Positions 275 through 24,131 of a stretch of 24,131 bases of DNA are shown here, piece after piece; position 1 is the first letter of the stretch; every line of letters begins with the position of its first letter. The stretch spans positions 1 through 24,131 of the IMG/VR virus record IMGVR_UViG_3300025168_010387, one strand, 5' to 3'. The DNA is from a virus. The position numbers and the translations under genes were made by a program. The notes below the pieces were generated by a model. It was not told the DNA's origin. It did not search any database and saw nothing but the letters and a program-made list of their open reading frames with translations.

Positions 275-520
275 ATGGCTAAAAAAACACATCTAAAAGA
301 AGATGAATTAAAAAAAGTACAAGAATTCGTCAATAAATTAAATGAAGGAAATTGTAATGTTGGTATTTTAGAAAATCAAAAAATGAATTTACTAATGCAA
401 GTCAATCAAGTACAAGAAGAGTTCAATAAATTTCAAAAAGAGATAGAAGAAATTTACGGAAAAGTTTCAATCAATATTGAAGACGGAGCATTATCAGAAA
501 TCAAAGATGAAAAAAAATAG
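275..520 (+). CDS. Small coiled-coil phage protein, function unknown
   Basis: An 81-residue, lysine- and glutamate-rich protein. Residues 8-62 read as two long amphipathic helices, with hydrophobic spacing typical of a coiled coil. The C-terminal segment YGKVSINIEDG (about 61-71) is a compact strand-turn that I associate with small phage proteins of this helical type, often annotated hypothetical. The ATG at 275 follows TAAATAAA, a typical Bacteroidetes-style A/T-rich initiation region. Its 3' end overlaps the QueD start by 14 bp, so translation is probably coupled to the preQ0 cassette. A structural or chaperone-like role is possible, but the sequence shows no catalytic motif. Confidence 0.65.
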   Translation: MAKKTHLKEDELKKVQEFVNKLNEGNCNVGILENQKMNLLMQVNQVQEEFNKFQKEIEEIYGKVSINIEDGALSEIKDEKK

Positions 521-920
521 TATTAGAATAGAAAAAAAGTATCATTTTTATGCTGGACATAGAAACAAAAGTGCCGGAGAAAAATGTGGTAGACTTCATG
601 GACATACTTATTATGTTGAAGTTGTATTAGGATTTGATAATTTAAAGAATGGTGTTACTATATTGTTCCATGATATTGATTTAATAATTAAACCAATTAT
701 AAAACAGTATGACCATTTTTTTATATTCCATAAAGAAGACCCATTATGTGATGCTTTTGATTTAGTAAATGAGCCTTATATAAAAGTTCCTTTTGAAACT
801 TCTGCTGAAAACATGGCTATATGGTTATTCACTCAGATTAAACACGAATTACCAATCGTAGAAATAAGATTAAAAGAAACAACCAGTTCAAAAATTGTTT
901 ATCGTGGCGTTGAGGATTAG
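507..920 (+). CDS. queD: 6-carboxy-5,6,7,8-tetrahydropterin synthase (QueD)
   Basis: Converts 7,8-dihydroneopterin triphosphate, the FolE product, into 6-carboxytetrahydropterin, the second step to preQ0. The 137-residue protein has the full PTPS/QueD signature: zinc ligands His18 (in FYAGH) and His31/His33 (in the CxxxHGH motif), catalytic Cys27, the Asp69-His70 pair (YDH) and Glu124 (RLKET). SAENMA at about 99-104 matches the conserved TAEN region. A TTG-initiated reading from 477 is possible, but the ATG at 507 gives the normal family length and puts the start inside the preceding gene by 14 bp, like the other overlaps here. It is the first enzyme gene in a gap-free run with queE, folE and queC. 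A eukaryotic-type PTPS activity is unlikely in this context. Confidence 0.93.
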   Translation: MKKNSIRIEKKYHFYAGHRNKSAGEKCGRLHGHTYYVEVVLGFDNLKNGVTILFHDIDLIIKPIIKQYDHFFIFHKEDPLCDAFDLVNEPYIKVPFETSAENMAIWLFTQIKHELPIVEIRLKETTSSKIVYRGVED

Positions 921-1599
921 CGAATATTTTTATAGTATACAAGGAGAAGGAAGAACAATGGGAGTTCCAGCAGTCTTCGTTAGACTTCAAGCGTGTAATA
1001 TTTTATGTAAAGGAGAGTGGATATGTGATACAATAGAGGTCTGGAAGACAGGAAATAAATATTCCAGCTTAGAATTTTTATTAATGATAAAAGATTATAT
1101 ACCATATTTAGAAAAAGGTACTCATTTAATTTTTACTGGTGGCGAACCTATACTTCAAAAAAAAGGAATTGTTGAATTTATTTTATTATTTACAGAGACA
1201 TATGGCTTTACTCCTTACCTAGAAATTGAAACTAATGGAACTTTATCTCCTGGAAAAGAGTTGAGTGATAAAATTGATTTGTTTAATTGTAGTTTTAAGT
1301 TAGCAAATAGCGGTGTACGATACGATAGAAGAATAAAAATAGAAGTATTAAAAGAGCTTTTAAATTATAATACAATATTTAAAATAGTAGTTGCAAATGA
1401 AAAAGATTATGAAGAGGCAAGATTAATTTTTGATGAAGTAGGAATTGAAAATAAAAATATTTATCTCATGCCTCCAGCAGATAATATTAATGAGCTAAAT
1501 AAAAATCATAATGCAGTTTCTGATTTATGTATGAAAGAAAGTGTAAATTTTAGTACAAGATTACAAATAATTTTATGGAATAAAACAACAGGAGTATGA
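910..1599 (+). CDS. queE: 7-carboxy-7-deazaguanine synthase (QueE), radical SAM
   Basis: A radical-SAM enzyme that rearranges 6-carboxytetrahydropterin into 7-carboxy-7-deazaguanine. Visible motifs are the N-terminal SIQGEG, the cluster cysteines in ACNILCKGEWICDT, the SAM-binding TGGEP, ETNGT, the SFKLANSG strand, LMP, and the C-terminal RLQIILWN. The cysteines are spaced CX3CX5C rather than the classic CX3CX2C, a local insertion as in some QueE variants. The first in-frame ATG (958) would remove SIQGEG, so a non-ATG start must be used. TTG at 910 gives the typical MRISEYFYSIQGEG opening; GTG at 904 or TTG at 895 are alternatives. The gene overlaps queD by about 11 bp and the next gene by ATGA. 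Confidence 0.92.
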   Translation: MRISEYFYSIQGEGRTMGVPAVFVRLQACNILCKGEWICDTIEVWKTGNKYSSLEFLLMIKDYIPYLEKGTHLIFTGGEPILQKKGIVEFILLFTETYGFTPYLEIETNGTLSPGKELSDKIDLFNCSFKLANSGVRYDRRIKIEVLKELLNYNTIFKIVVANEKDYEEARLIFDEVGIENKNIYLMPPADNINELNKNHNAVSDLCMKESVNFSTRLQIILWNKTTGV

Positions 1600-2435
1600 A
1601 AAAACACAAAGTTACATGGAACGAAATCTATTTAAAAATAGATGCAATGAAAGAAGCATTAACAAATAAGAAAGATAAGATATATGGAATTCCTAGAGGT
1701 GGACAGATTATAGCTGGTCTAACTGGTTTAGCAGTTGATACACCAGAGGAAGCTAATATAATTGTAGATGATTTATACGATAGTGGAGCTACTTATAAAA
1801 AATGGTATAAGAAATATCCTGATAAAGAATATTGTTTTTTATTTAACAAACAATTTGAATATCAAAACACATGGTTAGAATTTCCGTGGGAGGAATCTGG
1901 AGAGAAAGAAGTGGAAGAAAATGTTGTTAGATTACTAGAATATTTTGGAGAGGACACTAACCGAGAGGGATTACAAGATACTCCGAAACGATATATCAAT
2001 TTTTTTAAAGAATTTTTATCTCCTCCTAAATGGAATTGTACAACATTTGAATCTGAAGGCTACGATGAAATGATAGTTCAAAGCAATATACCCTTTCAAA
2101 GTTTATGTGAACACCATATAGCACCGTTCTTTGGAGAAGGTTTTATAGCATATATACCTAAAAAACGAATCGTTGGATTAAGTAAACTAGCTAGAACACT
2201 TGAAACATTTTCTAGAAGACTTCAGAATCAAGAAAGAATTACAAAACAAGTTGCAGAATTTTTGGAAAAAGAATTAGAACCTTTAGGAGTTGCCGTAGTT
2301 TTAAAAGCTAAACATATGTGTATGGAAATGAGAGGAGTAAAAAAACACAATACATGGACTACTACTTCAACAATGAAAGGTGTTTTTAAAGACGATTCAA
2401 AAGCTAGAAATGAATTCTTAAATTTAATTAAATGA
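1596..2435 (+). CDS. folE: Phosphoribosyltransferase-like domain fused to GTP cyclohydrolase I (FolE)
   Basis: A 279-residue fusion. Residues 1-100 resemble a compact type I phosphoribosyltransferase: GIPRGG at 31-36, the PRPP-binding loop VDDLYDSGAT at 57-66, and an LEFPWE ending near 94-99 like xanthine/guanine-type enzymes. Residues 105-279 are FolE, which opens GTP to dihydroneopterin triphosphate and so feeds QueD. FolE residues present are the CEHH motif with Cys171, His173 and His174, QER(I)T at 212-216, and Cys242 in HMCM. The 71-residue spacing of Cys171 to Cys242 equals that of the zinc cysteines of E. coli FolE. The PRTase half is shorter than usual (about 150 residues), so it may be a degenerate or regulatory domain. 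The ATGA overlaps at both ends argue for one intact gene rather than a sequencing fusion. Confidence 0.9.
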   Translation: MKKHKVTWNEIYLKIDAMKEALTNKKDKIYGIPRGGQIIAGLTGLAVDTPEEANIIVDDLYDSGATYKKWYKKYPDKEYCFLFNKQFEYQNTWLEFPWEESGEKEVEENVVRLLEYFGEDTNREGLQDTPKRYINFFKEFLSPPKWNCTTFESEGYDEMIVQSNIPFQSLCEHHIAPFFGEGFIAYIPKKRIVGLSKLARTLETFSRRLQNQERITKQVAEFLEKELEPLGVAVVLKAKHMCMEMRGVKKHNTWTTTSTMKGVFKDDSKARNEFLNLIK

Positions 2436-3127
2436 AAACATTAGTTATTTTCTCAGGGGGACAAGATTCAACCACTTGTTTATACTGGGCATTAAAAGAA
2501 AAAATTAGATGGAATGAAGTAGAGGCAATTACATTTAACTATGGACAAAAACATTCTATTGAAATTGAGCAATCAAAAATCATTTGTAAAAAAGAAAATA
2601 TAAAACAAACTATTATTGACATATCATTTTTAGATACTTTAGTAGAATCAGCACTAACATCAAATGGAGATGTAAATAAAATTAATGATAAAGGATTACC
2701 GGCTTCCTTTGTTCCAAATAGAAATCAATTATTTATTACACTTGCTCACGCTTATGCTCAAAAGATAAAAGCAAAAATCTTAATAGGAGGAATGTGTGAA
2801 ACTGATTACTCTGGTTATCCTGATTGTCGCAGAGATTTCATTGATTCAATAGCATTAGCATCAAATATTGGTAGTGATTCAGATATTATAATTGAAACAC
2901 CTTTAATGTATTTGGATAAAGCAGAAACATTTAAACTAGCAAATAATACCGGACACTTAAAAGAAATAATTGAATTATCTCACACTTGTTATAATGGAGT
3001 TCGTAATGAACTTCATATGTGGGGATATGGATGCAATGATTGTCCAGCTTGTTATCTAAGAAGAAAAGGATATTACAAATTTTTAGAATTAGATGAGATA
3101 GAAAAAAATAAATTTAAACTAGTATGA
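2432..3127 (+). CDS. queC: 7-cyano-7-deazaguanine (preQ0) synthase (QueC)
   Basis: An ATP-dependent enzyme that turns 7-carboxy-7-deazaguanine plus ammonia into preQ0. The 231-residue protein has the PP-loop SGGQDS at 8-13, the VPNRNQ motif at 94-99, TDYSGYPDCR at about 124-133, and four C-terminal zinc cysteines at 186, 201, 204 and 207. The first cysteine spacing (Cys186 to Cys201) is a few residues longer than in the E. coli enzyme. It has no amidotransferase extension such as occurs in Gat-QueC fusions, so the expected end product is preQ0 itself. It overlaps folE by ATGA upstream and the transglycosylase by ATGA downstream, which places base synthesis and base insertion in one translationally coupled set. 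Confidence 0.94.
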   Translation: MKTLVIFSGGQDSTTCLYWALKEKIRWNEVEAITFNYGQKHSIEIEQSKIICKKENIKQTIIDISFLDTLVESALTSNGDVNKINDKGLPASFVPNRNQLFITLAHAYAQKIKAKILIGGMCETDYSGYPDCRRDFIDSIALASNIGSDSDIIIETPLMYLDKAETFKLANNTGHLKEIIELSHTCYNGVRNELHMWGYGCNDCPACYLRRKGYYKFLELDEIEKNKFKLV

Positions 3128-4023
3128 TTTTATATTTTGCTGGAAATGTAGGAAATCAAAAATACAAAGAGTCATGTATGATATTAGGAAATGCCGAAAA
3201 TCAATTAATTTCTTACAATGATATATTAACCAAAAATGCAAATATGAATTTATACTTTGCTGGAGCAGAGGTTTGGCATCAAGTACTAGACGATATACAG
3301 GTAACAAAACAATTAGCATCGTATCATTATATGACAGATTTTAACGATAAAAAAAAAGATGCTGTTTTTAATAGACCTAGAAATATTTTTATTGATTCAG
3401 GAGGTTTTTCTGCCTTTACTCAAGGAGTTAAAATTAACATAGATGACTATTGTGATTTTATTAAAAAATATAAAAAGCAAATTACTTACTATGCACAGCT
3501 AGACGTTATAGGAGACGAGCAAGGAACAGAGAGAAATCAAAAATATATGGAATCACAAGGTTTAAACCCCTTACCTGTATTCCATTTTAAAGGCGATTAC
3601 AAGCGATTAGAGGCATTAGCAAAAGAATATGACTACATATGTCTTGGAGGGCTTGTGCCTCTGTCTAGGACGAAACCTATTTTAATAGCACATTTGGATA
3701 AGTGTTTTTCAATTATAAAAGATAATTGCAAAGTTCATGGTTTTGGAATGACAGGTATGGATATTCTTAAAAGATATCCGTGGTATTCTGTTGATTCTAC
3801 AAGCTGGATAGAAGCATCTAGACGAGGAACACACTATGAATTTAAAAATGGTAAAATGAATATGCTGTCAACATCTGATAAGAAAAAAGCAACTTATAAA
3901 TCAATAGGTTTTAGTGGTAAACAAAAAGGATTGTGGAGACTGAGATTAATACATTCAATAAAAGAATGGCTCAAACTGGAAATATATATTAATGAATTAT
4001 GGAATAAAAAATTAAATAAATAA
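3124..4023 (+). CDS. dpdA: DpdA-like DNA-guanine transglycosylase (TGT-related)
   Basis: A 299-residue protein predicted to swap guanine in DNA for the preQ0 made by the preceding enzymes. It carries a TGT-like core: FIDSGGFSAF with Asp91 (compare DSGGFQ of tRNA-guanine transglycosylase), QLDVIGD with Asp127/Asp131, CLGGLVPL at 173-180, HGFG at 205-208, and YSVDSTSW with Asp224, which aligns in position with the nucleophilic aspartate region of TGT and is followed by a similar RRG. No cysteine occurs after residue 202, so the C-terminal zinc site of tRNA TGTs is missing, as expected for a DNA-directed DpdA-type enzyme. LYFAG occurs twice (residues 3-7 and 43-47), so a start at Met41 is conceivable. 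The ATG at 3124 overlaps queC by ATGA. Function is inferred from motifs and context. Confidence 0.82.
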   Translation: MILYFAGNVGNQKYKESCMILGNAENQLISYNDILTKNANMNLYFAGAEVWHQVLDDIQVTKQLASYHYMTDFNDKKKDAVFNRPRNIFIDSGGFSAFTQGVKINIDDYCDFIKKYKKQITYYAQLDVIGDEQGTERNQKYMESQGLNPLPVFHFKGDYKRLEALAKEYDYICLGGLVPLSRTKPILIAHLDKCFSIIKDNCKVHGFGMTGMDILKRYPWYSVDSTSWIEASRRGTHYEFKNGKMNMLSTSDKKKATYKSIGFSGKQKGLWRLRLIHSIKEWLKLEIYINELWNKKLNK

Positions 4024-4028
4024 AAAAT

Positions 4029-4670
4029 ATGAAAAAAGGATGGTTGGATATTGATCTTTCTAAATTAATTAAAGCAAATTGGAATTACAAAGAAGATTGT
4101 GAAAAACAAACTGATAATTTAATTGCTAATTTTAAACGAATTGGTCAGGTAGAAAATTTATTAATACGAGAATTAGACACTGGTTTTTTTGAAGTGCTAA
4201 ATGGAAATCATAGAATTGATGTTATGAGAATTCTAAAACTAAAAAAAGCTCATGTATATAATTTTGGAAAAATAGGATTAGCAGAAGCACAGCGAACTGC
4301 AATTGAAACTAATGAAACAACATTTGAATCCGATAATATAAAATTAGCAGAAATAATAAATAAGTTAACAAAAATATTTCCTTCTGAGGAATTAGCTAAG
4401 ACAATGCCCTATTCTGAGGATGAAATTTCAAAAATGTCTGATCTTACCAAATTTGATTGGAGTCAATATGATTCAGATGAAGAAGCAGAAAATTTTGGAG
4501 ATAATGAATTCAATATACAAATCAAATTAAATGTTTCACATGAAACGAATGAAAGATGGAAAGAATTAAAAAGTAAGATGTCAGAAATATTAGGATATAA
4601 AAATGAAAGTAAAGTATTTGAATTTGCAGTAATTGAAGCATTAAACATACCTGATGAAAGTATTAATTAA
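4029..4670 (+). CDS. ParB/sulfiredoxin-fold-like protein beside dpdA
   Basis: A 213-residue protein with a ParB-type N-terminal domain. GQVENLLIRELDTGFFEVLNGNHRID (about 39-64) matches ParB box I and II, with GNHR in place of GERR, and LAEAQRTAIETNE (84-96) matches the EAQ helix. The linker at 140-158 is acidic. The last 55 residues look like a small strand plus helices domain resembling a DNA-binding or dimerisation unit. ParB-like proteins of phages often sit just before terminase genes. ParB-like DpdB also works with DpdA in bacterial dpd clusters, where it uses ATP. Both explanations fit its place between dpdA and terS. It is not a plasmid-partition ParB on the evidence here, since no ParA is seen. 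The gap to dpdA is 5 bp and to terS 2 bp. Confidence 0.75.
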   Translation: MKKGWLDIDLSKLIKANWNYKEDCEKQTDNLIANFKRIGQVENLLIRELDTGFFEVLNGNHRIDVMRILKLKKAHVYNFGKIGLAEAQRTAIETNETTFESDNIKLAEIINKLTKIFPSEELAKTMPYSEDEISKMSDLTKFDWSQYDSDEEAENFGDNEFNIQIKLNVSHETNERWKELKSKMSEILGYKNESKVFEFAVIEALNIPDESIN

Positions 4671-16339: not shown

Positions 16340-19300
16340 ATGGCTGCAATTAGATATAAGTGCGAATATAAATCTTTAAATGGTTGGGAATATAAATTAG
16401 AAATATGGGATAAGAATTGGACAGGTTCTGTATCTGATTTTAATATTTCTGAGGGTGGTGCAAAGATAAATTATAATTCTGATGGTGATAAAAAATTCAC
16501 CGAGATAATGACCTCAACAATGGAGTTTGTTTTTGCTGTTGAAGATGCATCACAAAATTCTTTTATTACTTATCTTAGAAGTACAACAATTGAAGAGAAA
16601 GATATTTACTGTATTCTCTATAAAAAAGTAACTGGCTCTAGTTATGGAATCATGTGGAGTGGTATTATGTTATTAGACTTAGGAAATAAAGAAGATTTAT
16701 ACTATCCTTATGATGTTAGTTTTAAATGTATTGATGGAATAGCTTTATTAAAAGATATTGACTTTGTTCCAACTCCTAGTGCAAATCCCTATTCTTACAA
16801 TGATACTTATTTAGAACCTGATAACACTTATAATTCCAATAAATATGTTCCTTTTATTCACTGGCTTCAAACTATTTTAGCAAAAGTAGATTTTGCAGGA
16901 ACAACTCAAGGTTTAACAGACTGGAAAATATCATCATCTGTTAATTGGTATAATTTAATTCATGCTGGATACGGTGCGTCATATCAAAACGAAGACCCAT
17001 TAAGAATAACAAGATGTAATGGTGAGCAATTTTATAGCGAAATAGAAGCGGATGAGAGTGAAAACACTCAAGATGTACGTTATGATGCTATGAACTGTTA
17101 CGATGCCTTAGAAGCTATCTGTAAGGCATGGGGAATGAGATGTATGTGGTATCAAAATACAGTGTATTTTATACAGTTAGGAAATTATGATTCAGCAGAA
17201 ACAGGAACAACAGCAGATCCTGTTAATATGAGAACAAAATTGTATAATTCTGACGGTACTTTTAATGTTAATCAGGATAATGTAGGAAATGCTAACATAG
17301 CACGATATGATCAAACAATTGAAAATACAACAAATCCAGGAGAGGGAATACAAAAATTAGCAACTACTACATGGGGTGATTATCCAGTTATAAAAAGAGT
17401 GGAGGCAGATTTTTCTTCTATCTCAAATGTTTCTTACTTCAATGCTTTTCCTTTAATATTTGGAGCAACAGCATCTCCTCATACTTGGGTGAGTAATGGA
17501 AATGTTGAAGGCACTTCATCAATAATTGGAACATTTACTGATGCCGCAAATTTAGACGGTTATTTTGTTGATATTAATTTACAATTTATAAACACCCATG
17601 TTTCAGTAGTTGAACAAGAATTATTATGGACTATAAGAGCCAAACCATCTTCTCAATCAAGTTTTGAAGCCGCAACAAGCAATCTAGCATTAGTAGCTGT
17701 ATTTGAATATAATACAACTACTTCAGCATGGGAAGTTTATTGGGAGCCATATAAAATTTTAGCAAATCAAAATCCTTTACAATTACAATTTTCAACATCT
17801 ACAACAGGAAGTTTAGGAGGTGCTGTAATGAACTTATGTAGAAAAATTATTGCAACCCCTCCTGGAGGTGGGGTTATAAATATAATAAATGGAACAAAAT
17901 TAGGACAACAAGCAAATGGAATTCTACCTACTCATGCAAATATGACTGGGGATTGGGATTTTGAATTTTTTACGTTAGCAGGAAAATCAAATGCTGGAGA
18001 TAATTACGGTCATGGTACTTGGAGATATGTTCCAGCATCTGGAGGTAGAAAAGCTCCATGGTCTAATATTAATACATTAGGAATTGATGTAATGTATAAC
18101 AATACATCAAATATATTATATGGAAACTCTTTTTCTCCAATTTTAGGAGGTTTTATTGGTTCGGTGGGAACAAACACAAATTTCTCTACATCAACATCAA
18201 ATTCTTTTATATATAAAATTAAGGACTTATTATGGGGAGATACAGAGACAAAAGGTGTTCCAGGAAGTTTACAATGTTATAATGGAACAAATTGGAGTTA
18301 TACTGATTTTACTGGTAAATGGGGGATTGGAGTAACCTCTGGAAGTGATTCATTCACAGAATTATTATGTAGACAAACGCTATCAACTCAAATTTCACCA
18401 TCTGAAAAAGGAAATTATACATTAGTAACTGGAAAAACAAATAAAGATATTAGCGGTTCTGTTTTATATCCTAAACAAGTAAATCCTCTAGGTAGAGTTA
18501 AGGATACATTAAATAATAATTACTATGTATTTTTAACAGGTACGATACAAACAGGAATAGATGAGACCTCAGGATTATTTTTTGAATGGACTTATAGTTT
18601 AGCTTCAGGAACAGCAACATCAACAAGTACTGGTGGTGGTGGTGGTGTTGGTGTAAAGTCTGGAAGAATTAATTACAAACAAAATAAAGACACTACATCA
18701 GAGCTTTTTGCTAGAACCTTACAACCGATAGGAATAATTGGTGGAACTGGCTATAAAGCTGGAACATCATACACAACCTTAACACTAGCATCTGCATTAG
18801 TAATAGATTTAAAGGAGGGAAATAAATTAGAAATAGCAGAGAATGGATTAACACAATTAGTAGAATTATCTGCTGATTATACTGCAGAATATCCAACAGC
18901 AATTTCAATAAATTCTGTCACATTTGATATAGATATTTCTCCTGGAGCTGAATTACAAATAAATCAAAATAATTTATACGAACAATACCAAAGAAAAACA
19001 GAGGGTCAAGTAGCTGGGTTTTCAGTTAATTCAACTGGTTTAACAAAAAGTGGAATTAGTATAACAGATTGGCTTAATAGTGATACTATGACTGGTGCTG
19101 CTATTACTAACGTTCCTACTGCCTTATCGGTTAAAAATTACGTTGACGGACAAGCTGGTCATGATGAAACTCTGGCTCAAGTTTTAGTAAATGGAAATAC
19201 AACAAGCGGAACTGACATTATTGTTTCTCATAATGATACATTAAAACTTGGTGATGATGGTGAGTTTCAAATTTGGCATCAAAGTGGAGCAAGTGGAAAT

Positions 19301-22300
19301 AGTTTTATTGATGAAACCAATACTGGTGATTTATATATTAGGTCAAATTCAGCCATAAGATTTTCTCATTATGCTAATAATACTGCAAGTGGTATTTTTT
19401 ATCCAAGTGGTGGCGTTGAATTATATTATAATACTGCAAAGAAATTTGAAACAACATCAACTGGAATATCAATAACTGGTGGTGGAGTTTTTACAGGACA
19501 AGTAACAATCTTACTAACTCCAGTTGCAAATACAGATAGTGCGAGCAAGGGTTATGTAGATACTCAAGTGGCTACTATTCCAAAAGGATTATCATATCAA
19601 GGAACATGGAATGCTTCAACTAATACGCCTACTATTGTTTCTAGCGTTGGATCAGCTGGATATTATTGGATTGTAAGTGTAGAGGGTACGACAACTATTG
19701 ATGGTGTGTCTGATTGGAAAGTTGGGGATTGGATTATATTTAGTGATAGTGGGGTTTATCAAAAAATAGACCAGTCAGAAGGTGATACTTTACAGACAGT
19801 AACAACAAGAGGAAACACAACTACTACTGGTGCTACATTTGGAGCTGCTGTTAATATTAATGGTGGAAATAGTGGTCAATTAAATATAACCTCAGGAAAC
19901 GTAGCTTGGGATGCTTCTATTGATTTAGATACTGGAGATACTAATGGACAATGGAGAATAAGAGCTGAAGGCTCAGATGAAACTTTCCAAATTTCTAACA
20001 TAGATCAAGGAGGAACATCAGCATTTTCTATACATCCAACAACTAAAGCCACAACATTTGGCGGTGATGTAAAAGTAGGAGATGCATATAATACTATATA
20101 TAAAAATGATGGATTTACATTTACTTCAAATCAAGATTACAATATTAAATGTGGTAGTACAAAGATTTTAGATTTACATTTTAACGAGATTAAATTATAT
20201 ATTGGTGGCTCGGAAAAAATAAGGTTAGATTCTACTGGATTAGGAATTGGTACTTCTTCTCCTCAAAATCTTTTACACTTAAAATCCAATGACCCTAAAA
20301 TTTATTTAGAAGATGGTAATGCAGCAACAAATGAAAAGGTTTATGTAGTATATCCAGCAGGGAGTCAATACGTCATACAAACAAAAACAGATGCTTATGG
20401 TACAGGTCAACAAGCTTATGTTATTGATAGAACTGGAACAACAGTTGATGGACAAAACTGGTATATTAATAGCAATGCGGTTTTTTCACTTAATAGTAGT
20501 GGAAATGCAACATTAACTGGCTCACTAACTGGAACAACTGCAACATTTAGTGGAGATATTTTAATAACTGGAAATGATTATTATGGAATAAAATTTGCTA
20601 ATGCATCTGGTACAATTAAATCTTTAATTTATCAACATGCAAGTTATGATGCAATAGTTATAAAAGATATTGTAAACAATACTGATAGATTTATATTTAA
20701 AAATACTGGAAGTTTACTAATTGGAACAACGACAGAAAGAGAGAAGTTAACTGTTCAAGGCAATATTCAAGCACATGATGGTGGTGTTTTAGCTGGAATT
20801 GGAGCTGGAAAAGATGGTTTTGTGTTTCACGATTTATATACTGGTAGTGATTATTGGGGTTATCAAGCAAGACAAGGGGGTATAGGAAGTAGATTAGCTT
20901 TGTGTACTAATGGAGCTGAACAATTAACAATAGATGGAAATGGGTTAGCAATTTTTACTGGTTTAGTATCTGGAATTACTCCAACGGCAGATGCAAATTT
21001 TGCTACAAAATCTTATGTTGATACTCAGGTTGGTAGTGCTGATACATTAAGTGAGGTTTTAGCTTTAGGAAATACATCTGGAGCTAATGGTATTATATTT
21101 AATAATAATATAGCTGAATATTGGAAAGATAGTGCTGGTACAAACACCAGAATGATGATATTAAATAGTGGAAATGTTACCTATATTGGACCAATAGATA
21201 CTTATGCTGGAGGACCAATTTTATATGGTGTTGCTGCTGGAGTTAGCAGCCAGTCATGGTATACTGGTGCTTCTGAAAAAATGAGGTTAGATTCTACTGG
21301 ATTGGGAATTGGAACTTCAAGTCCGAGTGAAAAGTTAGAAGTAGTTGGAAAAGCAATAATTAGAAAATCTGGAAGTGCAACAGCTCATGGAGATACTGAT
21401 TTATTTGTCACAGATGCAACAGCAGCAAGTTCAACAGCAGCAATACAAATTTTAGGTGGGAATGCTGGTTTTTCAAATTTACAATTTTCAGATACTAATA
21501 GTTATAGTCAAGGAGCTATAATTTATGGTCACACCGATAATTACATGGCTTTTAAAGCTAATGCTTCTGAGAAAATGCGACTTACATCTACTGGATTAGG
21601 AATTGGAACGACAAGTCCTACACGATTATTAACTATTGAAAATAATACATCAACAGTAACAAACAATTCTCAATTGAGAATTAATAATTTAGGATCTGGT
21701 GATTCATACATTTACTTATATGCTGGAGCTGATTGGGCTTTAGGAGTTGATAATAGTGATTCCGATAAATTTAAAATATGTTCTTCAAATGATGTTAGTG
21801 ATGGAACTGAAGCGATAACTATTGATAGATCTAATAATGTTGCATTAACTGGCTCATTAACTGGAACAACTGCAACATTTAGTGGAACATCTGATGGTTT
21901 TATTTTTTTAAATTCTACGGATAATGGCTCTAATTTTATGGCTTTGCAAAGAAGTGGAACAAGAATCTCATATATTGGATATGGTGATAATAGTAATAAT
22001 TTAAGTTTTGCTAATGAAACTGCTAACGGACACATTTTATTTATAACAAATAGCTCAGAAAGAGCGAGAATTACTGATGGCGGAAGTTTTCTTATAGGCA
22101 CCACAGTTAATACTGGAGCTAAATTAAGCATTAATCAATCATCTGCAACAGACCCTGTAATGAGGTTAACAGATGCTGGTGTTGCTGATTATGATTTTAT
22201 ATTTCCAGATACGAATACTTTAAAAATTGAAACAAATACTGGAAGCACTAAAACTTTTAAATTATTAAACGCTGGTACTGGAGGATTTAATTTAGAAGCA

Positions 22301-24131
22301 AGTGAGGCAACATTTAGTGGTGCTTTATTAGTGGGAAGTGGTGAGTTTATATCATGGGGGACTGCTGGTCAAACATCTATTGAAGGAAGTACAGTAAGTA
22401 ATAAGTTAGACTTCAGAATTAGTGGTACATCAAAAATGTTGCTTAATTCTACTGGCTTAGGTATTGGAACTTCTTCTGTTGATAGACCTTTAACTATAAA
22501 CTCAGATGCTTCTGGTCATGCTATTAGAATATTAGAAAATGATGCAGCAAATGAAAGTTGGGATATTGGAGTTGATGTTGATGGTGACCTTAATTTTCTT
22601 AATAGTGCTTCAGCCGTTCCCACAGTATCATTTCAAGATAATGGCTCTGCATTATTTACTGGTTTAGTTTCTGGAATTACTCCAACAGCAGATGGAAATT
22701 TTGCTACAAAAGGATATGTAGATACTCAGATAATTGCAAACGATAGTTTAGAGGAAGTAACAAGTGTAGGAAATAGCACATCATACGGAATAGAATTTAC
22801 AAGTACAAATTTTAGTATAGGTCAAGCAAAAATAGGATTATATTCTAATAATTATGTTTATTTAAGAGGTGGAGCTAATGGTCTGGTAATAGCTAGTGGA
22901 GATGGTGTTGTCCGTCATTTATTATCAACTAACGCTCATATTTTTGAAATAAGTGGTGAAAAAATGAGGTTAGATTCTAGTGGTCGTTTGGGAGTTGGTA
23001 GTTCAAGTCCGCAAGAATTATTAGATGTTAATACTAACGGAACTGGATTAAATGTTGAAAATACTGCTGCAATATTTGGTAACGATGTAGGAACTACTCA
23101 AAGTAGAGATACTTGGATAAAAATGAGAGCTTCTGGAGCTACTACTGATAGGTCTTGGGCTTTTGGAAGTAATCAAAGTGGAGATTTTAGATTTAATTAT
23201 TTAGGTGATAGAACAATAGCTCCAACATCTGGCTCTTCTTTTTTAATTATTAAAAATACTGGAAGTCTACTTTTGGGAACTACGACTGATGGCGGAATAC
23301 TTGAAGTAGATGGAACATATGGTGATTTAAAGATTGGTGATCCTAGTATTGGAACACGAATAAGTTATTACGATACTACAAGAATATTAATGAACTCTGC
23401 GGACATTATATTTTACACTAATAGTTTAACACAAAGAATGACTATTAAAGCTGATGGTAACGTAGGAATTGGCACTTCTTATCCAGTATCTAAATTAAAT
23501 ATTGTTGGCTCTGACAATACTTCTTCTAAAATAACAATAACAAATACAGCAACAAGTCCAGATAACACTTGGTCAATTCATTCAAATTACAATTCACAAG
23601 AATTAATTTTTACTGGAGATAGTACGCAAGTTTTAAGTCTTAATGATAACGGAACTGCAACATTTAGTGGAACTATTTCTTCTGTGGGAGCATCTATTTT
23701 TACTTTAAATGATGGTGTTTTTGTAAAAGCAGTTAACGGAACAAATAATGTAGCTTCAACTAATGTTTGGGGTTATGGTTTATATGAAGGTAGTGCTAAA
23801 TTAGGAGAAATTAGTTTAGTTAGAGATGGTAGTAATAGTCAAATGTATATTGGAACTTCTGCTGTTAATCAAATATTAACAATTGGAAGTGGTAATAAAG
23901 CTACTGCAATGACAATTAACGCTAACCAAAATATTTTAATTGGAACAACAACTGATGATGGCTCAAGTAAACTTCAAGTAGATGGTATTGTAAAAGTAAT
24001 TCACACAGATAATTCTTACGCAAAATATAGAGGACAAGGTGTTTATTTTAATAGAGCTACTTCTTATTTAGCTCCAGAAGTTGATAATTATGGAACGCTA
24101 AATGTAGGATATGATGGTGGAAGATGGGGTA
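16340..24131 (+). CDS. Giant tail-tip/tail-fibre protein, 3' end outside the window
   Basis: An open frame of at least 2,597 codons without a stop, starting at the ATG 3 bp after the tape measure stop and running off the right edge. Residues 1 to about 760 lack repeats and contain aromatic, strand-rich sequence, in the position where distal-tail and baseplate-hub proteins lie. A glycine run (STGGGGGVGV, coded near 18627-18655) then leads to the fibre part. The fibre is low-complexity and rich in Ser, Thr, Gly and Asn. It has four K(G/S/N)YVD-Q modules each followed by DTLxxVxxxGN, and about ten LGIGT(T/S)SPxxKLxV units, like large Bacteroidetes phage and adhesin proteins that often end in an S74-type self-cleaving chaperone. 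That end is not visible here. No separate distal-tail gene is seen in the window. Confidence 0.8.
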   Translation, partial: MAAIRYKCEYKSLNGWEYKLEIWDKNWTGSVSDFNISEGGAKINYNSDGDKKFTEIMTSTMEFVFAVEDASQNSFITYLRSTTIEEKDIYCILYKKVTGSSYGIMWSGIMLLDLGNKEDLYYPYDVSFKCIDGIALLKDIDFVPTPSANPYSYNDTYLEPDNTYNSNKYVPFIHWLQTILAKVDFAGTTQGLTDWKISSSVNWYNLIHAGYGASYQNEDPLRITRCNGEQFYSEIEADESENTQDVRYDAMNCYDALEAICKAWGMRCMWYQNTVYFIQLGNYDSAETGTTADPVNMRTKLYNSDGTFNVNQDNVGNANIARYDQTIENTTNPGEGIQKLATTTWGDYPVIKRVEADFSSISNVSYFNAFPLIFGATASPHTWVSNGNVEGTSSIIGTFTDAANLDGYFVDINLQFINTHVSVVEQELLWTIRAKPSSQSSFEAATSNLALVAVFEYNTTTSAWEVYWEPYKILANQNPLQLQFSTSTTGSLGGAVMNLCRKIIATPPGGGVINIINGTKLGQQANGILPTHANMTGDWDFEFFTLAGKSNAGDNYGHGTWRYVPASGGRKAPWSNINTLGIDVMYNNTSNILYGNSFSPILGGFIGSVGTNTNFSTSTSNSFIYKIKDLLWGDTETKGVPGSLQCYNGTNWSYTDFTGKWGIGVTSGSDSFTELLCRQTLSTQISPSEKGNYTLVTGKTNKDISGSVLYPKQVNPLGRVKDTLNNNYYVFLTGTIQTGIDETSGLFFEWTYSLASGTATSTSTGGGGGVGVKSGRINYKQNKDTTSELFARTLQPIGIIGGTGYKAGTSYTTLTLASALVIDLKEGNKLEIAENGLTQLVELSADYTAEYPTAISINSVTFDIDISPGAELQINQNNLYEQYQRKTEGQVAGFSVNSTGLTKSGISITDWLNSDTMTGAAITNVPTALSVKNYVDGQAGHDETLAQVLVNGNTTSGTDIIVSHNDTLKLGDDGEFQIWHQSGASGNSFIDETNTGDLYIRSNSAIRFSHYANNTASGIFYPSGGVELYYNTAKKFETTSTGISITGGGVFTGQVTILLTPVANTDSASKGYVDTQVATIPKGLSYQGTWNASTNTPTIVSSVGSAGYYWIVSVEGTTTIDGVSDWKVGDWIIFSDSGVYQKIDQSEGDTLQTVTTRGNTTTTGATFGAAVNINGGNSGQLNITSGNVAWDASIDLDTGDTNGQWRIRAEGSDETFQISNIDQGGTSAFSIHPTTKATTFGGDVKVGDAYNTIYKNDGFTFTSNQDYNIKCGSTKILDLHFNEIKLYIGGSEKIRLDSTGLGIGTSSPQNLLHLKSNDPKIYLEDGNAATNEKVYVVYPAGSQYVIQTKTDAYGTGQQAYVIDRTGTTVDGQNWYINSNAVFSLNSSGNATLTGSLTGTTATFSGDILITGNDYYGIKFANASGTIKSLIYQHASYDAIVIKDIVNNTDRFIFKNTGSLLIGTTTEREKLTVQGNIQAHDGGVLAGIGAGKDGFVFHDLYTGSDYWGYQARQGGIGSRLALCTNGAEQLTIDGNGLAIFTGLVSGITPTADANFATKSYVDTQVGSADTLSEVLALGNTSGANGIIFNNNIAEYWKDSAGTNTRMMILNSGNVTYIGPIDTYAGGPILYGVAAGVSSQSWYTGASEKMRLDSTGLGIGTSSPSEKLEVVGKAIIRKSGSATAHGDTDLFVTDATAASSTAAIQILGGNAGFSNLQFSDTNSYSQGAIIYGHTDNYMAFKANASEKMRLTSTGLGIGTTSPTRLLTIENNTSTVTNNSQLRINNLGSGDSYIYLYAGADWALGVDNSDSDKFKICSSNDVSDGTEAITIDRSNNVALTGSLTGTTATFSGTSDGFIFLNSTDNGSNFMALQRSGTRISYIGYGDNSNNLSFANETANGHILFITNSSERARITDGGSFLIGTTVNTGAKLSINQSSATDPVMRLTDAGVADYDFIFPDTNTLKIETNTGSTKTFKLLNAGTGGFNLEASEATFSGALLVGSGEFISWGTAGQTSIEGSTVSNKLDFRISGTSKMLLNSTGLGIGTSSVDRPLTINSDASGHAIRILENDAANESWDIGVDVDGDLNFLNSASAVPTVSFQDNGSALFTGLVSGITPTADGNFATKGYVDTQIIANDSLEEVTSVGNSTSYGIEFTSTNFSIGQAKIGLYSNNYVYLRGGANGLVIASGDGVVRHLLSTNAHIFEISGEKMRLDSSGRLGVGSSSPQELLDVNTNGTGLNVENTAAIFGNDVGTTQSRDTWIKMRASGATTDRSWAFGSNQSGDFRFNYLGDRTIAPTSGSSFLIIKNTGSLLLGTTTDGGILEVDGTYGDLKIGDPSIGTRISYYDTTRILMNSADIIFYTNSLTQRMTIKADGNVGIGTSYPVSKLNIVGSDNTSSKITITNTATSPDNTWSIHSNYNSQELIFTGDSTQVLSLNDNGTATFSGTISSVGASIFTLNDGVFVKAVNGTNNVASTNVWGYGLYEGSAKLGEISLVRDGSNSQMYIGTSAVNQILTIGSGNKATAMTINANQNILIGTTTDDGSSKLQVDGIVKVIHTDNSYAKYRGQGVYFNRATSYLAPEVDNYGTLNVGYDGGRWG
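20513..20554 (+). repeat. 42-bp fibre repeat, copy 1
   Basis: It codes LTGSLTGTTATFSG and differs at a single base from the copy at 21845-21886. Shorter relatives ending in GCAACATTTAGTGG occur near 22308 and 23657. The same strand-turn unit has been reused along the fibre, close enough at DNA level for recombination between copies. Confidence 0.85.
20954..21028 (+). repeat. 75-bp fibre module repeat, copy 1
   Basis: It codes FTGLVSGITPTADANFATKSYVDTQ split across a conserved linker, and differs at 7 of 75 bases from the copy at 22655-22729. Both are followed by a divergent DTLxEV or DSLEEV-x-GN start of the next module, marking domain boundaries in the fibre. Confidence 0.85.
21845..21886 (+). 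repeat. 42-bp fibre repeat, copy 2
   Basis: Identical to 20513-20554 except for one silent C/T change, in the same reading frame. The spacing between the two copies is 1,332 bp, a multiple of three, so deletion or duplication between them would keep the frame open. Confidence 0.85.
22655..22729 (+). repeat. 75-bp fibre module repeat, copy 2
   Basis: Second copy of the linker at 20954-21028, with 68 of 75 bases matching. The distance between copies is 1,701 bp, again a multiple of three, so the intervening block (21029-22654 plus one copy) is a candidate in-frame duplication or exchange unit. Confidence 0.85.

What the first reader, a model, noticed from the sequence alone, without database searches (positions are those of the whole stretch)
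507..4023. Complete preQ0 pathway plus a DpdA-like enzyme: predicted 7-deazaguanine modification of phage DNA
Seen: QueD, QueE, FolE and QueC with intact catalytic motifs, in an unbroken chain of short overlaps ending in a TGT-like protein with DSGGF and SVDST aspartates and no zinc-site cysteines. Known: these four enzymes make preQ0, and phage DpdA proteins insert 7-deazaguanines in DNA and protect it from restriction. Inferred: with no QueF-like, amidotransferase-fused QueC or DpdC-like gene in the window, the simplest product is 2'-deoxy-preQ0 in DNA. The whole route from GTP to inserted base is carried here by the phage itself in under 4 kb.
Basis: partly seen in the sequence, partly recalled or inferred. 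Interest (0 to 1): 0.78.

Follow-up and report, generated by a model that had tools for sequence, protein, structure and literature searches.

The report
Phage DNA-base operon with guanine-salvage fusion
A virus of bacteria carries all the enzymes to build a modified guanine and swap it into its own DNA, probably as armour against restriction; its first enzyme is fused to an overlooked guanine-salvage-type domain, and related phages replace the last genes of the operon as a block, probably to change which base they use.

Summary
QueD, QueE, FolE, QueC and a DpdA-like transglycosylase lie in one overlapping operon (window 507-4023) next to the terminase genes of a tailed phage. The DpdA model matches archaeal and bacterial TGT (Z about 19-20), with both aspartates invariant and no zinc-site cysteines. 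The core reading, preQ0 made and inserted in DNA, is a known kind (CAjan, Rosebush).

(1) The "FolE" is a fusion: residues 1-99 are a compact xanthine-guanine phosphoribosyltransferase (XGPRT) domain with intact PRPP and purine-site motifs but without about 25 residues that hold the flexible loop. A search with this domain alone gave 84 distinct viral loci, 80 with at least two que/dpdA genes nearby. Cultured Queuovirinae carry it too, annotated only as GTP cyclohydrolase. I propose that it recycles the guanine DpdA expels into GMP/GTP for FolE (inferred). (2) In close relatives the genes after FolE are swapped as cassettes: QueC+DpdA; a small QueD-like protein+another DpdA (14 loci, never with QueC); ParB-like+short DpdA. 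QueE can be 94% identical while DpdA is 37%.

The window is a 24-kb fragment, so dPreQ0 is the best guess, not shown. New variant of a known kind.

The parts
507..920 (+). QueD (6-carboxytetrahydropterin synthase)
   Evidence: PF01242 2e-22, phrog_2389 8e-22; C27, H31, H33, D69, H70 and E124 invariant among 10 relatives
904..1599 (+). [quoted passage not shown] GTG start likely); three Cys spaced CX3CX5C
   Evidence: phrog_2076 2e-51; PDB 7-carboxy-7-deazaguanine synthases 5e-8 to 3e-4; C30, C34 and C40 invariant in 10 relatives
1596..1892 (+). compact XGPRT-like phosphoribosyltransferase domain, N-terminal part of the FolE fusion
   Evidence: phrog_8995 4.5e-9; PDB XGPRT 4.4e-4 with this domain and 5.6e-7 with a family profile; AF2 model aligned to E. 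coli XGPRT with guanine/cPRPP (1a95) Z 11.0, 99 residues, 2.1 A; PRPP and purine motifs conserved 0.88-1.00 over 98 domains
1893..2435 (+). FolE (GTP cyclohydrolase I), C-terminal part of the fusion
   Evidence: PF01227 1.7e-64 at residues 107-278; TIGR00063 above cut-off; Zn ligands CEHH/MCMEMRGV invariant
2432..3127 (+). [quoted passage not shown]
   Evidence: PF06508 2e-68; TIGR00364 above cut-off; SGGQDST and four Cys
3124..4023 (+). DpdA-like DNA guanine transglycosylase; residues 1-40 are a poorly modelled extension
   Evidence: phrog_887 7e-57; AF2 pLDDT 76.7; Foldseek best PDB hits all TGT, E about 3e-7; VIA Z 20.0 over 254 residues to archaeal TGT 1iq8; D91 and D224 invariant
4029..4670 (+). 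ParB-like protein; conserved gene beside DpdA in this phage group, candidate accessory factor
   Evidence: phrog_723 9e-20; ParB-like gene next to DpdA in 35 of 76 loci

Best explanation
This is a self-contained 7-deazaguanine DNA-modification operon of a tailed phage. FolE, QueD, QueE and QueC convert GTP to preQ0, and the DpdA-like enzyme exchanges guanine in phage DNA for preQ0, which probably blocks restriction enzymes. The N-terminal XGPRT-like domain of the FolE fusion most likely takes guanine, including the guanine that DpdA expels at each exchange, joins it to PRPP, and returns it as GMP. Host kinases would make that GTP, FolE's substrate, so the guanine cycle closes. Shown by computation: gene content, domain identities, folds, conserved sites, genomic linkage. 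Inferred: catalytic activity, base identity, DNA as substrate, and the recycling role.
For: Gene families and motifs. TGT fold of DpdA. The five-gene set gives dPreQ0 in CAjan and Rosebush (28-32% of G), and CAjan without dpdA has none (PMC6884629). XGPRT identity of residues 1-99. Site conservation over 98 domains: G36 1.00, D58 .98, D59 1.00, D62 .95, G64 1.00, T66 .98, K85 .88, W93 .99, P97 1.00. Linkage: a search with the domain alone gave 84 non-redundant viral loci; 80 have at least two of QueD/QueE/QueC/DpdA nearby, 73 are fused to FolE in one ORF, and several of the rest are separate genes inside the same clusters. Cultured phages VpKK5, NP1, MMDA13, a Stenotrophomonas phage and Vibrio 1.207.B carry it beside DpdA. 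Separately, two Prochlorococcus contigs put a compact PRT beside or overlapping a nucleoside deoxyribosyltransferase, another base-exchanging enzyme.
Against: The domain lacks about 25 residues that in full-length XGPRT-type proteins lie between the RGG and DD motifs (23-38 residues between them here against 51-56), the stretch holding the flexible loop, so activity may be weak or lost. Most DpdA phages do without it: 34 phage records have the fusion against 240 with DpdA. Sinorhizobium has the fusion in que operons with no DpdA seen nearby, so it is not tied to DNA exchange. The window is a fragment, so another modifying gene may exist. AF2 confidence for the fused protein is modest overall (65.9), though about 84 over the PRT part.
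Confidence: 0.6

Rival explanations
1. Same preQ0-in-DNA operon, but the XGPRT-like domain is a regulatory or scaffolding module: it binds PRPP, guanine or GMP and tunes FolE, or helps its assembly, without catalysis.
For: The segment with the flexible loop is missing in the fused forms while the ligand site is conserved. It sits directly on the first enzyme of the pathway, as a feedback module would.
Against: Stand-alone copies exist inside que clusters (L115, L122, L126, L130, L041, L045) and, outside them, beside a nucleoside deoxyribosyltransferase in Prochlorococcus, which suits an enzyme. D62, the base-side Asp of the PRPP loop, is kept at 0.95.
Confidence: 0.22
2. The XGPRT-like domain acts on a pathway product (preQ0 or CDG) and makes its nucleotide, so part of the modification could be built from a nucleotide rather than by DpdA exchange.
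For: A PRT acting on preQ0 is, from my own knowledge, part of toyocamycin-type pathways (not tested here). The domain tracks the preQ0 pathway rather than DpdA in Sinorhizobium.
Against: A TGT-fold DpdA with both catalytic aspartates is present, so a nucleotide route is unnecessary. D62, thought to contact N7, is conserved although 7-deazapurines have no N7.
Confidence: 0.1
3. The final base is not preQ0 but a further product (amide, formamidine or amine) made by a gene outside the window.
For: The window is a fragment. Closest relatives carry a stand-alone class II glutamine amidotransferase, one has DUF6884 beside QueC (L005), and another a QueF-like ORF (L026).
Against: The amidotransferase occurs only with an amidoligase and also in QueC-less relatives, which points to another function. 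No QueF outside the FolE cross-hit in the 31-kb relatives.
Confidence: 0.2
4. The enzymes feed host tRNA queuosine rather than phage DNA.
For: The same four enzymes make the tRNA precursor; PRT-FolE operons without a DpdA seen nearby exist in Sinorhizobium.
Against: DpdA homologues of this class (phrog_887; CAjan, 9g) act on DNA in published work. The protein has no cysteines for the TGT zinc site and is exchanged together with its supply enzyme as a cassette.
Confidence: 0.06

Closest known systems
Phage preQ0/DpdA modification of CAjan and Rosebush (Hutinet et al. 2019, PMC6884629)
   Same: [quoted passage not shown] predicted dPreQ0 in DNA
   Different: Here FolE carries an XGPRT-like domain; QueE has a wider Cys spacing; the operon sits by the terminase with a ParB-like gene; the finishing cassette is swapped among close relatives
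Queuovirinae que/dpdA clusters (NP1, PaMx25, VpKK5) and Sphingomonas phage MMDA13
   Same: Carry the same PRT-FolE fusion beside DpdA, though annotated only as GTP cyclohydrolase
   Different: Gene order QueE-QueC-QueD-FolE-DpdA next to DNA polymerase; NP1 has an amidotransferase-fused QueC and MMDA13 a QueF-like protein; the window has neither
E. coli/Yersinia xanthine-guanine phosphoribosyltransferase (Gpt)
   Same: Fold, RGG loop, DDxxDSGxT PRPP loop, Lys and Trp of the purine pocket
   Different: About 25 residues with the flexible loop are gone; fused to FolE
Cellulophaga phage phi47:1 que/dpdA cluster
   Same: DpdA (30% identity) directly beside a ParB-like gene with FolE, QueC, QueD and QueE
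   Different: No PRT domain was detected on its FolE; extra QueF-like gene

Membership tests
[quoted passage not shown]
phage preQ0-in-DNA pathway (Hutinet group 2) | no amidotransferase or QueF acting on preQ0 | tested here: inconclusive
   None in the window; no QueF in the 31-kb relatives; a class II amidotransferase in relatives appears unrelated to QueC; record is a fragment
phage preQ0-in-DNA pathway (Hutinet group 2) | 2'-deoxy-preQ0 in virion DNA | not testable with these tools
   needs LC-MS
DpdA / TGT superfamily | TGT (beta/alpha)8 barrel | tested here: met
   Foldseek and VIA: TGT, Z 20.0, 254 residues, 3.4 A
DpdA / TGT superfamily | two catalytic aspartates | tested here: met
   D91 and D224 invariant in 11 relatives
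DpdA / TGT superfamily | acts on DNA, not tRNA | not testable with these tools
   inferred from homology to CAjan and 9g DpdA
bacterial DpdA (NCBIfam NF041059) | score over curated cut-off | tested here: not met
   24.4 bits against cut-off 200; it is of the phage type (phrog_887)
XGPRT (Gpt) | PRPP-binding DDxxDSGxT and RGG loops | tested here: met
   conserved in 98 domains: R .90, GG .99-1.00, DD .98-1.00, D .95, S/T and G 1.00, T .98
XGPRT (Gpt) | purine-site Lys and Trp (K115, W134 of E. coli) | tested here: met
   K85 0.88, W93 0.99; residue roles from general knowledge
XGPRT (Gpt) | flexible catalytic loop | tested here: not met
   R-to-D spacing 23-38 against 51-56 in full-length forms
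QueE | three cluster-binding cysteines | tested here: met
   C30, C34, C40 invariant
QueE | canonical CX3CX2C spacing | tested here: not met
   CX3CX5C here, up to CX3CX18C in relatives

The most novel reading that the evidence does not exclude
The compact XGPRT domain closes a guanine cycle: guanine expelled from DNA by DpdA is returned as GMP to the GTP pool that FolE draws on. This chassis (QueD, QueE, PRT-FolE) is constant while a finishing cassette (supply enzyme plus matched DpdA) is exchanged between phages, so that each phage changes its DNA base by recombination.
Probability: 0.4. Interest if true: 0.72.

Novelty: new variant of a known kind. Interest (0 to 1): 0.58.

Why it matters
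It links a salvage-type enzyme to phage DNA hypermodification through a gene fusion found in many phages but labelled only as GTP cyclohydrolase in the records read here. It also provides a natural series in which the base-supplying enzyme and the inserting enzyme change together on a constant background. That makes the open question of how DpdA selects its base directly testable, and offers new enzymes for writing modified guanine into DNA.

Tried and rejected
Sequence search of the DpdA-like protein against PDB gave mostly antibody chance hits and one weak DNA-guanine transglycosylase; only the fold search settled it. PF14489 (QueF) rang in 12 of 13 relatives, but apart from a second, weak hit in the L026 record all hits lie inside the FolE ORF (T-fold similarity), so it is not evidence of QueF. 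The relatives' class II amidotransferase looked like a missing G+ step, but it always comes with an amidoligase, also in QueC-less phages, so I rejected it as the Gat partner of QueC. 'The compact PRT occurs only in que clusters' was tested and is false: Prochlorococcus and Clostridia examples stand elsewhere. A first genome scan for the PRT found nothing; a second with a broader alignment did. Profile comparison of the small QueC-replacing protein with QueD was weak (27% probability, E 7e-4); the only PDB hit is the QueD-like PH0634 (E 0.002). The paper defining DpdL and the DpdA3/DpdA4 subfamilies is not held, so those names come from memory. No paper found links a phosphoribosyltransferase to phage 7-deazaguanine, but key papers are not held.

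Full report
OBSERVATION. The window is an IMG/VR virus record of 24,131 bp, linear, a fragment. The five ORFs at 507-4023 are real and overlapping, with strong family matches: QueD, QueE, FolE, QueC and a DpdA-like protein. Downstream come a ParB-like gene, small and large terminase subunits and the portal protein, so this is a tailed phage. QueE keeps three invariant cysteines with unusual spacing CX3CX5C.

DpdA. The 299-residue protein has no Pfam hit but belongs to phrog_887 and is 36-38% identical over its core to DpdA of 9g and CAjan. An AlphaFold2 model (mean pLDDT 76.7) matches only TGTs among the best Foldseek hits (E about 3e-7) and archaeal TGT at Z 20.0, 254 residues, 3.4 A. D91 and D224 are invariant across relatives. 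No Cys follows D224, so the usual TGT zinc site is absent. It scores far below the bacterial DpdA model, so it is of the phage type.

PATHWAY. FolE+QueD+QueE+QueC+DpdA without an amidotransferase is the published signature of dPreQ0 (Rosebush 28%, CAjan 32% of G; CAjan without dpdA has none; PMC6884629). In the closest 31-kb relatives QueF appears only as a cross-hit inside FolE. A stand-alone class II amidotransferase there comes with an amidoligase and also in QueC-less relatives, so it is probably unrelated. The product dPreQ0 remains an inference.

THE FUSION. Residues 1-99 of the 'FolE' are a phosphoribosyltransferase domain closest to XGPRT: phrog_8995 4.5e-9, PDB XGPRT 4.4e-4 with this domain alone and 5.6e-7 with a family profile, and a structural match to E. 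coli XGPRT with guanine and a PRPP analogue (Z 11.0, 99 residues, 2.1 A). Over 98 non-redundant domains the PRPP loop (D58 .98, D59 1.00, D62 .95, G64 1.00, T66 .98), the RGG loop and the purine-pocket Lys and Trp (K85 .88, W93 .99) are conserved. The stretch between RGG and DD is 23-38 residues, against 51-56 in full-length relatives, which removes the segment with the flexible loop.

LINKAGE. Searching viral contigs with the PRT domain alone gave 99 loci, 84 after removing those at least 95% identical. In 80, at least two of QueD/QueE/QueC/DpdA lie nearby; the other four are short or cut contigs that still show QueE, QueC or a DpdA. In 73 the PRT is fused to FolE; several of the rest have it as a separate gene inside the cluster. 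Only the best 80 of 120 hits were kept, so these are not complete counts. Cultured Queuovirinae and MMDA13 carry the fusion with DpdA, annotated as GTP cyclohydrolase only; the MMDA13 and 2019 papers do not mention a phosphoribosyltransferase. Sinorhizobium has it in que operons with no DpdA seen. Two Prochlorococcus contigs have a compact PRT beside or overlapping a nucleoside deoxyribosyltransferase.

MECHANISM PROPOSED. Each DpdA exchange expels one guanine and uses one preQ0, that is one GTP. An XGPRT domain on FolE could return that guanine as GMP. The fusion, the stand-alone copies in que clusters and the pairing with another base-exchanging enzyme favour salvage. The lost loop and the absence of the domain from most DpdA phages (34 fusion records against 240 DpdA records) speak against a general need.

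CASSETTES. In the close relatives QueD, QueE, PRT-FolE and usually ParB are constant, while what lies between FolE and ParB differs: QueC+DpdA (window, L003, L009, L011, L015, L023); DUF6884+QueC+DpdA (L005); QueC+QueF-like+DpdA (L026); a small protein of phrog_17812+another DpdA (L004, L008, L016, L021); the same small protein+a weakly glycosyltransferase-like protein+DpdA (L024); ParB-like+short DpdA+methyltransferase-like (L006, L014); truncated QueC+DpdA (L010, L020). Identities show exchange: L009/L010 QueE 94%, ParB 84%, DpdA 37%; L015/L011 QueE 90%, DpdA 43%; L024/L021 QueE 89%, DpdA 25%. Over the 84 loci the small protein is present in 14, never with QueC (61 have QueC alone; Fisher p 2.6e-10, phylogeny not corrected). 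It looks QueD-like (HRH motif; PH0634 E 0.002) and may be the CDG decarboxylase called DpdL in a paper I know only from memory.

VERDICT. The finding is correct, and its core is a known kind of system. What is new, as far as I could check, is the XGPRT-FolE fusion as a recurrent part of this pathway and the swapping of finishing cassettes with their DpdA.

Noticed in passing
L004:831-1220, L008:3492-3809, L016:621-1010, L021, L024, L080, L099, L104, L105, L111, L114, L128, L132: A small phrog_17812-like protein (HRHxF, SCE and ED motifs; QueD-like) occurs in 14 loci, never with QueC; candidate enzyme on CDG, perhaps a decarboxylase giving 7-deazaguanine.
   Followed up: partly
L009:8834-9499, L011:3582-4244, L015:8858-9523, L026:3843-4505: QueC proteins that lost all four zinc-type cysteines while keeping the P-loop and core motifs; L010 and L020 carry only a truncated QueC.
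   Followed up: no
window 4029-4670; L093, L097, L099, L101, L104, L119, L120, L124: ParB-like genes lie directly beside DpdA in 35 of 76 loci, up- or downstream; they could target DpdA, as ParB domains are also found with phage DNA methyltransferases (phrog_498).
   Followed up: partly
L024:9154-10131: A weakly glycosyltransferase-like protein (PF00534, E 0.0025) between the small QueD-like gene and DpdA; possible sugar addition to the modified base.
   Followed up: no
L006:3265-3828, L013:4146-4733: Methyltransferase-like gene directly after a short DpdA in QueC-less phages; possible methylation of the carboxy-deazaguanine.
   Followed up: no
L040:1215-2068, L043:3511-4370: Prochlorococcus: compact stand-alone PRT beside or overlapping a nucleoside 2-deoxyribosyltransferase; looks like a purine-salvage pair.
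   Followed up: partly
L034:7429-10896, L037:5940-9892: Sinorhizobium que operons (L034 on a plasmid) with the PRT-FolE fusion and no DpdA detected nearby; role unclear.
   Followed up: no
L134:8484-15742 (G002), also G003, G007, G010: Amidoligase and class II amidotransferase genes in four relatives (a gamma-glutamyl cyclotransferase also confirmed in G002), independent of QueC; a separate modification system.
   Followed up: partly
window 3124-3246: DpdA N-terminal extension of 40 residues repeats the LYFAG start (MILYFAGN / MNLYFAGA); shared by L003, L005, L009 and L015, not by the other DpdAs aligned; low model confidence.
   Followed up: no
window 16340-24130: Open-ended ORF of 2597 residues, a repetitive tail-fibre-like protein; relatives have 1194-1264 residues at this place.
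   Followed up: no
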